A stretch of 64,000 bases of DNA from assembly GCA_914767715.1 (NCBI GenBank), contig OU612065.1, forward strand, positions 558,001 through 622,000, in the 5' to 3' direction. Each line of letters begins with the position of its first letter. The first letter of the stretch is position 1. The translations under genes were made by a program, and so were the position numbers. This stretch comes from Membranipora membranacea. Taxonomy: Eukaryota > Bryozoa > Gymnolaemata > Cheilostomatida > Membraniporidae. The notes beneath the pieces were generated by a model. That model was not told the origin of the DNA and ran no database searches. It was given only the letters and a program-made list of their open reading frames with translations. This document shows, one piece after another, positions 56,945 through 61,801 of this stretch.

Positions 56945-59900
56945 TCAGTTTATAAGCGATTTCGTCATGTAAGGTCCTTCCAGTTCGTAGCCCAGTTTGC
57001 GGTAGTAGTTCCTCGTTCCTACACCTAAAATACATGCATAGATAAAATAGTACAGCACTTTAATCACAGTCTTACTCTGATGAGTGTAGTGTAGCAGACA
57101 TTCACGTACCCAAAGTAAAAGACATGGATATGTAGAAGAAGAGCTGATGTAATGACCTACAAGTTTACTTAGAGTACATAAGACTTAGCCTTACCTGATA
57201 TAACAGCTATCTTATTACTTCCATGTTCATCTAGTGCTACCCTCTCAGCTTCCTCCATCAACAGCATTCCAAAACCCTAAAGTAATAAACATCGTGTAAC
57301 AGTACTACAACTCACCCATATTATGTTATGCTGTGAACTTCAAGGGTTGGTAACAACAGCGGCCAGAATAACCCTATAACAATAACCGATAGTTAGCCTG
57401 AGCTGATCATTGTGGGTTAGAGAGTAAGTTGTACCTGATGTTGGAACTTAGTAGGATCTCTGGAGTGTACGGGTACAGCTGTACCGTATACGTGTAGCTC
57501 TCTAACAACAGAGCATCCTCCCTTCATCTCTACTCTGAATGTATCCTCAGAGCACTTCCTCAGCCTCAGTAATCCTATCAGTATATCCTGCTCTGGGTCC
57601 TCGTATGATATAAATGTCTCCCAGCCTCCGTTAGCTACATAATCTCGTCTTATTAACTCGGCCTGTAACAAGTAATAACAGTGTTAGATATGAGATAGTG
57701 AGGACTGATTTCATCTATGAACTCACACAAAAAGTCCCAACTGTTGTTTGTTTGCCTCACAATGTGCCGTCTAGGATATAAACAGAACAGTAAACGTATA
57801 CTTACCTCATATGGTTTGACTTTATGATGAATCTCTTGTATGCCGACTTCTCTTGTTCTGACATCTCTACATTCAGTGCCCAGATCCTTCATACGAGCTA
57901 ACGCCAGCTCTCTCAGATTTCCATGTTCTACTCCGGATGTAACGAGAGGCATAGGGATATCTCTATATACAAATAACTCATTATAATGTAACAACATCCT
58001 ATACTTAGTATTCAAATGTTTTCATTAGTAACATACTCTTTCTCACAAAGAGCAAGGTCCTTTCATTGACAGTGACTGTCCTTGATATATGCCTCCCTCT
58101 AACAACATGGAGAATTATAGTAACTCTCTCAGCGTTAATCTGATTAGAGCGCACTGGTAGATATTCTCACTGTCTGAGAGCACATCGAGTTTTAATGCAC
58201 AGATTAACAGGCTAATCATAATGTGTTGAAGTTTAAAATCGGTGATGACTTACCTTTGAACTCTGTAGACTCTTGTCCATGGTGGAACTAGAGCTAGTAT
58301 CCTGGCGACTAGATCGACCAGTGTGCTGGGAGGGTAAGATTTATATCTGCCTGTCTTCCACAGCTCGTATAAACCTGTAATTAAATCAAAGCAACATCTG
58401 TAACAGTTACAGTAGAATTCTTATATACATAGTTATTACTTCACTCCTGCATTGTGATTGCGTCTATAGTAATATGGTATAATTGTTACAGGTGATATAT
58501 CCAAAATAGGGAGTCAGTGATTTGTAAGTCAGTTTGCGTTATTTCTAAAAAACTGTTGCTTCAAGTCAGTTGAGAAAATTCTTGATTCACAGCATCAAGA
58601 AGTGGCAGGTTAATCATTTGGCCCTAATATCAGAGATCACCTATAATACTGTAATTCCCACCTGTTCCTCTGATAACTAGTGTCGGATAGAGCTTTAGAC
58701 CATCAGATCTGAAGGCTGGATTCTCAAAGTACTCCTGTAATTTACAAGAGCAGTGTTACAGCTACCGAATGCAGTACCTAAGCTTTATAATAAATTGTCC
58801 AATTTAACAAGTAATTTTGACTTACCCATACATGAATTTTATCCAAAAAGGCTCAAATGTTGATATATATATATATGCAGGCGAACTTACAAACTGTCAT
58901 TAAGCTTACCACAAACTGATCAACATCTCTGTCTATGTCAACATTAGGTAGATCAGGCATCATATGAGCCACCACTTTGAATCCAGCATCCTTAGACATC
59001 TGGAAGGACTCGGTGACGGCCCGTACTGTGTGCCCTCGGTTTGTATCTCGGGCTACATCCTCATATACACTCTGTACTCCTATCTCGAGTCGAGTACATC
59101 CGTACTTTAACATATCACTAAGATGTCTCTTCAGACAATAATCAGGCCGCGTCTCTATCGTTATACCGATACATTTAGTCTTACTCTTCTCAGAGTATCT
59201 GTAATATTCATTGTAAATATTGTCTTATCCTGAAACATCAATCTGTTCTGAGGAAATGAACAAATATCACCATACAATGCTGTAGTCACAGGTAAAGGAG
59301 TTTGTAAACAATGCAAATCATCTTTACTTTGTGCAAAACACATCAGTGATTTCACAGTTCTGCCTTAAGTTGTACCTGACAGCCTCCTCCACACTATTAC
59401 TTGTGTGACCAGACAGAGCATCATGTAGGTTCCTTATAAAGTAATCTCTGTAGTCCTCTGCCATAGACATAAAAGTACCGCCCATCACTATAAACTCCAC
59501 CTAACAAGACACAATATCCCCAACGTAACAAGTCTGACCAACAAAACAGATAATTATTTGTTGCTTTCAATGATAGCTTTATAAAAGAAAAATCTGACAA
59601 AATGATTTGTCTGAAAAACCTTTCCATAAAATTTGCAGTACACGGTTACACTTACACGGTTACACTTACACGGTTACACTTACACGGTTACACTTACACG
59701 GTTACACTTACACGGTTACACTTACACTTACGGAGCGTAGATATCACAATAATAGAGGGTAATTAGAACTTACATTATACCTTATAGGGGTAAGATATAC
59801 CTTATAAGGATAAGACATACCTTATAAGGATAAGACATACCTTATAAGGATAAGACATACCTTATAAGGATAAGACATACCTTATAAGGGTAAGACATAC

Positions 59901-61801
59901 CTTATAAGGATAAGACATACCTTATAGGGATAAGACATACCTTATAAGGATAAGACATACCTTATAAGGATAAGACACACCTTATAAGGGTAAGATATAC
60001 CTTATAGGGATAAGACATACCTTATAAGGATAAGACATACCTTATAAGGATAAGACATACCTTATAAGGATAAGACATACCTTATAAGGATAAGACATAC
60101 CTTATAAGGGTAAGACATACCTTATAAGGATAAGACATACCTTATAAGGGTAATACATACCTTATAAGGGTAAGACATACCTTATAAGGGTAAGACATAC
60201 CTTATAAGGATAAGACATACCTTATAAGGGTAAGACATACCTTATAAGGATAAGACATACCTTATAAGGATAAGACACGCCTTATAAGGATAAGACATAC
60301 CTTATAAGGATAAGACACGCCTTATAAGGATAAGACATACCTTATAGGGATAAGACATACCTTATAGGGATAAGAAATACCTTATAAGGGTAAGACATAC
60401 CTTATAAGGATAAAACACACCTTATAAGGATAAGACATACCTTATAGGGATAAGACATACCTTATAAGGGTAATACATACCTTATAGGGATGAGACATAC
60501 CTTATAAGGGTAATACATACCTTATAAGGGTAAGACATACCTTATAAGGGTAAGACATACCTTATAAGGGTAAGACATACCTTATAAGGGTAAGACATAC
60601 CTTATAAGGGTAATACATACCTTATAAGGGTAAGACATACCTTATAAGGGTAAGACATACCTTATAAGGATAAGACATACCTTATAGGGATAAGACATAC
60701 CTTATAAGGGTAAGACATACCTTATAAGGATAAGACATACCTTATAAGGGTAATACATACCTTATAAGGATAAGACATACCTTATAAGGATAAGACACGC
60801 CTTATAAGGATAAGACATACCTTATAGGGATAAGACATACCTTATAGGGATAAGACATACCTTATAAGGGTAAGACATACCTTATAAGGATAAAACACAC
60901 CTTATAAGGATAAGACATACCTTATAGGGATAAGACATACCTTATAAGGATAAGACATACCTTATAAGGGTAAGACATACCTTATAAGGATAAGACACAC
61001 CTTATAAGGATAAGACATACTTTATAAGGATAAGACATACCTTATAATGATAAGACACACCATATAATGATAAGACATACCTTGTCCACACTATGACCTA
61101 GCTGAGCTAGTTGCTCCACTCTGTGACGTGTCTGTAGATATGGATTATATCTGGCTCTGATAGCTCTCATAGAGGTCGGCTCATATCCAGTATAAGATTG
61201 TGTGGAGTATTCAAAGTCTGAATCAGGACCACCAGGGCAGTATACACATATATTACCTGTCATAGCTATATGAGGACATCTGTGTGGCTTACACATCACA
61301 GCTACTACTGCTATCTATTAATCACATCAGTACAAACTACAAAACCTCGGTATACAAGGCAAGGAGTTTGTCCAAACAACGTCTGTCATCATGAAACTGT
61401 TTTAAAAAGAACCAATATAGTGGGCTGTACAGATTCACAATGTACACATACACAACATTTTGTGACAGGCTAAAATACAAGTACAGTAATAAAAGTAAAA
61501 TCTTACCCCACTGGCTGTCCTGATGGGTTTAGCTTTCAACTTTGGGATTAAAACCTGCAAGACAATAAGGTTACATGATCTAACAACAAAATACAACAAG
61601 AGGAGGAGAGTAATACAAGGTGGACAAAAAGCTTGAACAGCAGGAATTTTTGAACATCTCAACTATAAACTCTAATTCACATAAATCATAAATGCAGTGG
61701 ATAGACAAACCTTTTTATGTTGTTGAGGAACAGCAGCTATAATATCCACTAATCTCGGCTGACTAGACAAACCATACTTGCTGGATGCTTTTGTCTTCAA
61801 T
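56945..61801 (-). CDS. ELP3: ELP3, catalytic subunit of Elongator (5' exon missing)
   Basis: Radical-SAM and acetyltransferase-fold enzyme that modifies wobble uridine (cm5U34) in tRNAs as part of Elongator. Eleven exons in phase: 61801-61711, 61554-61507, 61314-61081, 59500-59376, 59198-58910, 58734-58662, 58374-58254, 57962-57806, 57662-57435, 57276-57195, 57024-56945. Visible landmarks are [16 protein letters not shown], the radical-SAM cysteines in [50 protein letters not shown], the acetyl-CoA-binding part starting [11 protein letters not shown], and the C-terminal [14 protein letters not shown]. About 509 residues are present. Roughly the first 40 residues of the family (one exon) lie beyond the LINE or outside the window. 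Intron 3 starts with a 65-copy 20-bp array. Identity with animal ELP3 is very high throughout. Confidence 0.96.
59641..59734. repeat. 14-bp tandem repeat with GTAAGT on the minus strand
   Basis: About 6.5 copies of CACGGTTACACTTA in the same ELP3 intron as the 20-bp array, about 140 bp upstream of the next exon. On the ELP3 strand each unit contains TGTAAGTG, a donor-like hexamer. Confidence 0.93.
59781..61080 (-). repeat. 20-bp minisatellite, 65 copies, starting at an ELP3 donor
   Basis: 1,300 bp of a 20-bp unit, GTATGTCTTATCCTTATAAG on the ELP3 strand, with no insertion or deletion across all 65 units, only substitutions (CCTT/CCCT, TAAG/TATA and similar). The first unit is the first 20 bases of intron 3: the exon ends GACAAG at 61081 and the array starts GTATGT at 61080. 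Most unit boundaries recreate AAG|GTATGT. Confidence 0.97.

What the first reader, a model, noticed from the sequence alone, without database searches (positions are those of the whole stretch)
59781..61081. ELP3 intron starts with 65 phased copies of its own splice donor
The exon ends AAG at 61081 and the intron opens directly into a 20-bp unit whose every boundary recreates AAG|GTATGT. The array runs 1,300 bp without a single indel. It therefore presents about 65 tandem candidate 5' splice sites to U1. Because 20 is not a multiple of 3, use of a downstream site would shift frame except every third unit, and the unit carries stops. The array may act as a donor buffer, a U1 sink or a source of nonsense-mediated control, or it may be neutral expansion seeded at the donor. 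Starting exactly at the junction argues against random placement.
Basis: partly seen in the sequence, partly recalled or inferred. Interest (0 to 1): 0.88.

Follow-up and report, generated by a model that had tools for sequence, protein, structure and literature searches.

The report
Repeat array copying a splice site
In a bryozoan (moss animal) genome, one intron opens with 65 copies of its own start signal, and it is one of a set of such arrays in ordinary genes where, to make the normal protein, the cell must pick the first of many near-identical signals.

Summary
The array is real: 65 units of exactly 20 bp (59781-61080, minus strand), no indels, beginning at intron base 1 of an ELP3 intron, most likely in a bryozoan. 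52 of 64 internal boundaries read exactly AAG|GTATGT. All 64 downstream donors give a stop codon, so only donor 1 makes ELP3; 'every third unit keeps frame' fails.

It is not a one-off. Motif searches of the 339 Mb genome, plus the window, found 13 arrays on real or probable 5' splice sites in 12 genes (FZR1 in this same window, RNF185, TARS, ITPR, BLTP1 among them). The exonic share of the unit is uniform over 12 arrays (KS p=0.91), so starting at the junction is not special. Phased AGGTAAGT triplets number 418 (at least 129 in one array without an exon) against 10 for the reversed motif at nearly equal single-site counts; an acceptor motif shows no excess.

Best reading: tandem duplications across a donor, silent because the 5'-most donor is still used; internal donors are passengers. 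Donor buffering, U1 sink and NMD control have no positive support here. Closest known: the human 6-16 (IFI6) multiple-splice-donor minisatellite. No RNA data were available.

The parts
61081..61314 (-). ELP3 exon (234 nt) ending HSVDK in phase 0, AAG|GTATGT donor
   Evidence: Gapless alignment to ELP3 8ptx across the junction; coordinates
59501..61080 (-). ELP3 intron, 1580 nt, acceptor ...TTGTTAG ending at 59501
   Evidence: Bugula and Watersipora ELP3 proteins have no insertion here
59781..61080 (-). 65 x 20-bp array, unit GTATGTCTTATCCTTATAAG, first unit = first 20 nt of intron
61075..61083 (-). donor 1 (AAG|GTATGT), the only array donor giving an intact ELP3 frame
   Evidence: 64 of 64 downstream donors give a stop
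59639..59727 (-). second array in the same intron, 14 bp x 6.4 (minus: GTAAGTGTAACCGT)
59376..59500 (-). next ELP3 exon, VEFIVMGG...VEEAV, followed by GTACAA
30880..31064 (+). second donor-straddling array in the window: 43 bp x 4.3 in FZR1/Cdh1, unit = last 32 nt of exon + first 11 nt of intron; first intron base 30912, next exon 31188
   Evidence: gapless alignment to FZR1 4ui9 across the junction

Best explanation
The array grew from a short tandem duplication at the exon-intron border that copied the first 20 nt or so of the intron with the donor, then expanded by slippage or unequal exchange to 65 copies. It survives because splicing keeps using the 5'-most, exon-proximal donor, so added copies only lengthen the intron. 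The other 64 donor-like sites are passengers. The same process has hit about a dozen genes seen so far in this genome. Shown: array, gene, frame consequences, recurrence, excess over control motifs. Inferred: that donor 1 is used in RNA, the duplication mechanism, and neutrality.
For: Only donor 1 gives protein in ELP3 (64 of 64 downstream donors hit a stop); likewise 0 of 2 TARS, 0 of 10 ITPR, 0 of 5 BLTP1 and 0 of 3 FZR1 downstream sites are productive, while the donor-1 product is continuous with known proteins. Unit start relative to the junction is uniform over 12 arrays, as expected for random duplications that happen to span a donor. Units share exonic sequence, 3-34 nt. 12 of 64 internal donors have changed, 3 of them GT>GC. 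Recurrence: 3 of 5 AAGGTATGT-array loci and 9 of 18 AGGTAAGT-array loci follow an open reading frame ending at the donor. An acceptor motif shows no excess (39 matches vs 75 reversed), as expected if the 5'-most donor and the first AG are used.
Against: No RNA reads. For competing equal donors the recalled minigene rule favours the intron-proximal site, the opposite of what is required here; in DOK7 the proximal site is preferred but is also the stronger one (PMC5585400, passages). 9 of 18 AGGTAAGT arrays have no recognised exon, so part of the excess is unexplained, and at least 129 of the 418 matches come from one such array. Donor positions vary in fewer copies than the rest of the unit (16 against 43), which mild constraint would also give. 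RNF185 is an exception: 32 of 32 downstream donors are in-frame and stop-free.
Confidence: 0.78

Rival explanations
1. Self-masking: the palindromic unit (CCTTATAAGG in 51 of 65) makes the array RNA fold on itself and hides internal donors, leaving donor 1 for U1.
For: Array RNA is far more stable than shuffles (-441 vs -280 +/- 7.6 kcal/mol; z -9.9 for 300 nt). Donor 1 ranks 3, 5 and 4 of 65 in accessibility at 80-, 300- and 600-nt windows. At 80 nt the internal donors are less accessible than in 76 of 80 unit-permuted arrays, and the donor-1/internal ratio exceeds that of 72 of 80.
Against: At 80 nt donor 1's rank is matched or beaten in 45 of 80 permuted arrays; at a 150-nt window donor 1 ranks 23 of 65, 8 of 50 permuted arrays are as closed inside and 16 of 50 reach the ratio. 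Not general: FZR1, RNF185, ITPR and L058 arrays fold worse than shuffles; 3 of 11 other arrays reach z -2.7 or below.
Confidence: 0.15
2. Regulatory donor bank: many donors tune ELP3 output through nonsense-mediated decay, or sequester U1, or insure against donor loss.
For: 52 of 64 internal donors intact and every alternative donor gives a stop; fewer copies vary at donor positions (16) than elsewhere in the unit (43).
Against: Distinct variant types are as many in the 9 donor positions (6) as in the other 11 (6). Units and unit lengths differ between genes. A backup donor that only yields stops insures nothing.
Confidence: 0.07
3. Ratchet array: each boundary AAG|GTATGT is a juxtaposed acceptor and donor, so the intron is removed in steps, donor 1 being rebuilt each time.
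For: Unit begins GT, ends AAG, holds CTTAT or CTTAC (branch-point-like, recalled consensus); ratchet points are juxtaposed acceptor and donor AG|GT (PMC8605326, passages).
Against: A 20-nt unit is too short for a metazoan intron, the pyrimidine tract is weak, AAG is a poor acceptor (all recalled or by eye); intron only 1.6 kb. No lariat data.
Confidence: 0.04
4. DNA-level element: CCTTATAAGG fits the CArG box recalled as CC(A/T)6GG, so 51 sites could bind an SRF/MADS factor.
For: 51 of 65 units match CC[AT]6GG.
Against: Post hoc; the other donor arrays have unrelated units; no binding data.
Confidence: 0.03

Closest known systems
[quoted passage not shown] only the title seen, in reference lists; paper not held)
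   Same: By its title, a minisatellite providing multiple splice donors in one transcript; as recalled, at an exon-intron boundary.
   Different: As recalled, the 6-16 unit is 12 bp, so alternative donors keep frame; the ELP3 unit is 20 bp with stops. Here such arrays recur in many genes of one genome. RNF185 here (36/39-bp units, all in frame) is nearest to 6-16.
Intron gain by tandem duplication of AGGT segments (Rogers 1989; Hellsten 2011; fission yeast SPOG_01682, as told in PMC4974935, passages)
   Same: Tandem duplication of a short segment containing AG|GT; in fission yeast a 24-bp unit with an intron across four copies.
   Different: There the duplication creates an intron from exon; here an existing intron is lengthened at its donor.
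Drosophila ratchet points (PMC8605326, passages)
   Same: Juxtaposed acceptor and donor AG|GT.
   Different: Ratchet points are single, well conserved and mostly in long introns; here a tandem array in a 1.6-kb intron, no evidence of use.

Membership tests
Minisatellite | tandem head-to-tail units of about 10-100 bp | tested here: met
   20 bp x 65.3, 93% matches, 0% indels
Multiple-splice-donor minisatellite (6-16 type) | array abuts an exon and units repeat a donor consensus | tested here: met
Multiple-splice-donor minisatellite (6-16 type) | several of the donors used in mRNA | not testable with these tools
   no RNA reads for this genome
Multiple-splice-donor minisatellite (6-16 type) | alternative donors keep the reading frame (recalled for 6-16) | tested here: not met
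   64 of 64 downstream ELP3 donors give a stop; met instead in RNF185, 32 of 32
Ratchet point (recursive splicing) | juxtaposed AG|GT with pyrimidine tract, lariat evidence | tested here: inconclusive
   AAG|GT present; tract weak by eye; no lariat data
AGGT tandem-duplication intron gain | new intron at a site lacking one in relatives | not tested
   relatives' genes not available as DNA; only proteins seen

The most novel reading that the evidence does not exclude
In this animal, 5' splice sites (not 3' splice sites) are preferred birthplaces of minisatellites, and the survivors obey a transcription-order rule: of up to 65 near-identical donors in a row, the spliceosome takes the first one made. 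Donor duplications are then silent while acceptor duplications insert sequence and are purged, which would explain the donor/acceptor asymmetry. RNF185 would be the case where such an array could become an in-frame, length-variable protein segment.
Probability: 0.35. Interest if true: 0.8.

Novelty: new variant of a known kind. Interest (0 to 1): 0.58.

Why it matters
How a spliceosome chooses among equal neighbouring donors is usually studied in minigenes, where (recalled) the intron-proximal site often wins. Here a genome offers about a dozen natural experiments, with 2 to 64 extra donors of equal or similar sequence, several in conserved genes (ELP3, FZR1, TARS, ITPR, BLTP1) where only the first donor gives protein. 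Long-read RNA from this species would settle the rule, and the donor/acceptor asymmetry gives an evolutionary read-out of it.

Tried and rejected
Rejected: 'junction start is special' (uniform start over 12 arrays); 'every third unit keeps frame'; unit as a dispersed satellite (exact 22-mer only here); known RNA family (0 Rfam hits at gathering score in 56000-64000). A unit-block duplication inside the array is only weakly indicated (best block 8 units at offset 24; 6 of 200 unit shuffles reach it). Structural masking kept as a weak rival. Control motif AGTGATAG was a poor choice: 346 matches vs 336 reversed; the listed rows are mostly (AGTGAT)n microsatellites, with 3 other loci on C1-C3; replaced by GATGAGTA. 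L039 (12 bp x 16) and L040 (MRPS23 intron) are not at verified donors. CLCC1-like candidate at 54847-54905 left open. Single-site counts of GATGAGTA and TTTTGCAG, and a CAGGTAAGT listing for contigs beyond C3, were wanted; GATGAGTA alone and CAGGTAAGT were asked for and never answered, TTTTGCAG alone was not asked. Literature: a search for minisatellite + splice site + bryozoan gave 0 papers and one for minisatellite/VNTR/cryptic splice/donor site/exon-intron boundary gave 0 with four of five terms; other listings. I make no claim that donor arrays are unreported.

Full report
What is there. The window lies in contig C1 (558001-622000) of a 339 Mb, 18-contig genome. The encoded ELP3 is 97% identical to Bugula neritina and 96% to Watersipora subatra ELP3, so the host is most likely a bryozoan. 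The gene is on the minus strand. An exon (61314-61081, 234 nt) ends ...HSVDK|, and the next (59500-59376) begins VEFIVMGG; the joined protein aligns without a gap to ELP3 in 8ptx, and Bugula and Watersipora ELP3 have nothing inserted at this point. The intron is 1580 nt. Its first 1300 nt are 65 units of exactly 20 bp, commonest form GTATGTCTTATCCTTATAAG, 14 forms in all. Unit boundaries read AAG|GTATGT in 52 of 64 internal cases; the rest are 4 AAG|GTGTGT, 3 AAG|GCGTGT, 2 AAG|GTATAT and one each of three others. The exact 22-mer CCTTATAAGGTATGTCTTATCC occurs 22 times in the genome, all here. The intron also holds eight GTAAGT sites outside the array, six in a 14-bp array at 59639-59727.

Consequence for the mRNA. 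I joined the exon end plus 0 to 64 units to the next exon. Donor 1 gives ELP3; all 64 others meet a stop before or within the next exon. Frame-neutral use of every third unit therefore does not exist.

Not a one-off. A search for three phased AAGGTATGT (gaps 4-32) gave 92 matches (16 for the reversed motif) in 5 loci. Three are at real donors: ELP3; an RNF185 gene (36/39-bp unit, 33 copies, the array starting 13 nt before the exon end); and threonyl-tRNA synthetase (25 bp, 3.1 copies). The other two are an intron of an MRPS23-like gene, not at its donor, and a stretch with no verified exon. The window itself holds another at 30880-31064: 43 bp x 4.3 in FZR1, beginning 32 nt before the exon end, with a gapless protein alignment across the junction.

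The strongest donor string gives more. Three phased AGGTAAGT (gaps 4-34): 418 matches against 10 for the reversed motif, though single sites are almost equally common (18,399 against 17,609): 2.27% against 0.057% per site. These are overlapping matches, not loci: at least 129 lie in one array of about 6 kb on C3 with no exon at its upstream end. Only the first 100 rows were listed, covering C1 to near the end of C3: 26 loci, or 18 if nine loci of one 31-bp family count once. I examined these 18 (eight further members of the 31-bp family were not opened). Nine follow an open reading frame that ends at a donor (in L058 the array starts shortly after the donor): ITPR (gapless to 5xa0 across the junction), BLTP1 (BLTP1_N across the junction, E 6e-23, 80.9 bits, below the curated cut-off of 100), a TMEM205-like exon and an EGF-like exon (weak Pfam matches below cut-off), and five more by open frame only: L044, L049, L053 twice in one gene, L058. 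Nine show no such exon (L043, L045, L047, L050, L051, L052, L054, L055, L059/L060). In all, 13 donor arrays in 12 genes; six junctions (ELP3, FZR1, RNF185, TARS, ITPR, BLTP1) are backed by protein continuity, seven by weaker evidence. The names for L049 (purple acid phosphatase-like) and L056 (TMEM205-like) are recalled from the look of the peptide.

Controls. GATGAGTA, same base composition, gave 62 matches in 7 loci in the whole genome (4 on C1-C3; reversed 41 matches), against 18 loci (31-bp family once) on C1-C3 for AGGTAAGT. AGTGATAG gave 346 matches (336 reversed), mostly 6-bp microsatellites in the listed rows; 3 other loci on C1-C3. The acceptor string TTTTGCAG gave 39 matches against 75 reversed, in 5 loci by my grouping. 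So the excess is at donors and not at this acceptor motif. If each of the 10 reversed matches were its own locus, 18 against 10 would not be significant (p 0.18), though the 18 cover only C1-C3. Single-site counts for these three controls were not obtained; TTTTGCAG is one acceptor string among many; the tool calls its repeat counts lower bounds. In the window AGGTAAGT occurs 11 times against 1 for its reverse, so in gene-dense DNA most such sites are probably real donors, and random seeding would also land on donors. Half of the donor-motif arrays have no recognised exon, and that part of the excess is unexplained.

Why 'starts at the junction' is not special. In 12 arrays that include exon sequence, the exonic share of the unit ranges from 0.14 to 0.85, mean 0.49, and does not depart from uniform (KS p=0.91, n=12; the L053b value was read by eye; L058 left out). 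ELP3 (3 of 20) is one draw. A tandem duplication spanning a donor leaves the first donor in place and puts later copies inside the intron, so any such array will seem to begin at the junction.

How it works. I favour silent duplication: the 5'-most donor stays in use and the rest is intron. Downstream donors are unproductive in ELP3 (0 of 64), TARS (0 of 2), ITPR (0 of 10), BLTP1 (0 of 5) and FZR1 (0 of 3), yet these are conserved genes, so the first of many similar donors must be chosen efficiently. In FZR1 the internal sites are weaker (A at -1), but in ITPR 7 of 10, in BLTP1 5 of 5 and in ELP3 52 of 65 internal sites score at least as well as donor 1 (its walk counts one site past the last ELP3 unit). 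The recalled minigene rule is an intron-proximal preference; in DOK7 the proximal site is preferred but also stronger (PMC5585400, passages). If both the first donor and the first AG are favoured, donor duplications are silent and acceptor duplications are not, which fits the asymmetry. This last step is inference. Variation inside the array: 6 variant types in the 9 donor positions and 6 in the other 11, but fewer affected copies (16 against 43), so slight constraint on donors is not excluded.

The exception. In RNF185 32 of 32 downstream donors are in frame and stop-free, and all 32 are exact AAGGTATGT. Of the 11 arrays only this one has a period divisible by three, so chance is possible.

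RNA structure. The ELP3 unit contains the palindrome CCTTATAAGG (51 of 65), and the array folds strongly. A masking role is weakly supported: internal donors are more closed than in 76 of 80 permuted arrays at an 80-nt window, but only 42 of 50 at 150 nt, and donor 1's rank does not stand out against permuted arrays. Of 11 other arrays, 3 reach z -2.7 or below and 4 fold worse than shuffles.

Limits. No RNA reads, no second individual, no DNA of relatives. A 1.3-kb array in a chromosome-scale assembly is probably sound, but this was not tested.

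Noticed in passing
L042:4773-6031 (G000 C4:3085272-3086530): RNF185 donor array of 33 units of 36/39 bp; all 32 downstream donors exact, in frame and stop-free: possible length-variable protein segment.
   Followed up: partly
window 30880-31064: FZR1 donor-straddling array, 43 bp x 4.3, in the same window as ELP3.
   Followed up: yes
window 54847-54905: ATCAAGGTATCACAGTCTCTC x 2.8 at the possible end of a CLCC1-like exon (MCLC match below cut-off); may be a third donor array or a coding repeat.
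   Followed up: partly
L053 (G000 C3:1359000-1361900): Two exons about 1.1 kb apart, probably of one gene, each followed by its own donor array (26-bp and 40-bp units).
   Followed up: partly
G000 C1:33572675-34379183: A 31-bp AGGTAAGT array family repeated at nine loci within 0.8 Mb; no exon seen at the one opened (L047).
   Followed up: partly
G000 C3:34609005 to about 34615100 (L059, L060): About 6 kb of a 37-bp AGGTAAGT-containing unit, at least 129 phased matches, no exon at its upstream end.
   Followed up: partly
window 23769-23959 (minus strand): In-frame coding repeats of an RS-rich (SRSRSPKR) protein, seen as tandem DNA repeats.
   Followed up: no
window 59781-61080: 51 of 65 units contain CCTTATAAGG, a perfect palindrome that also fits the CArG box consensus (recalled).
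   Followed up: no
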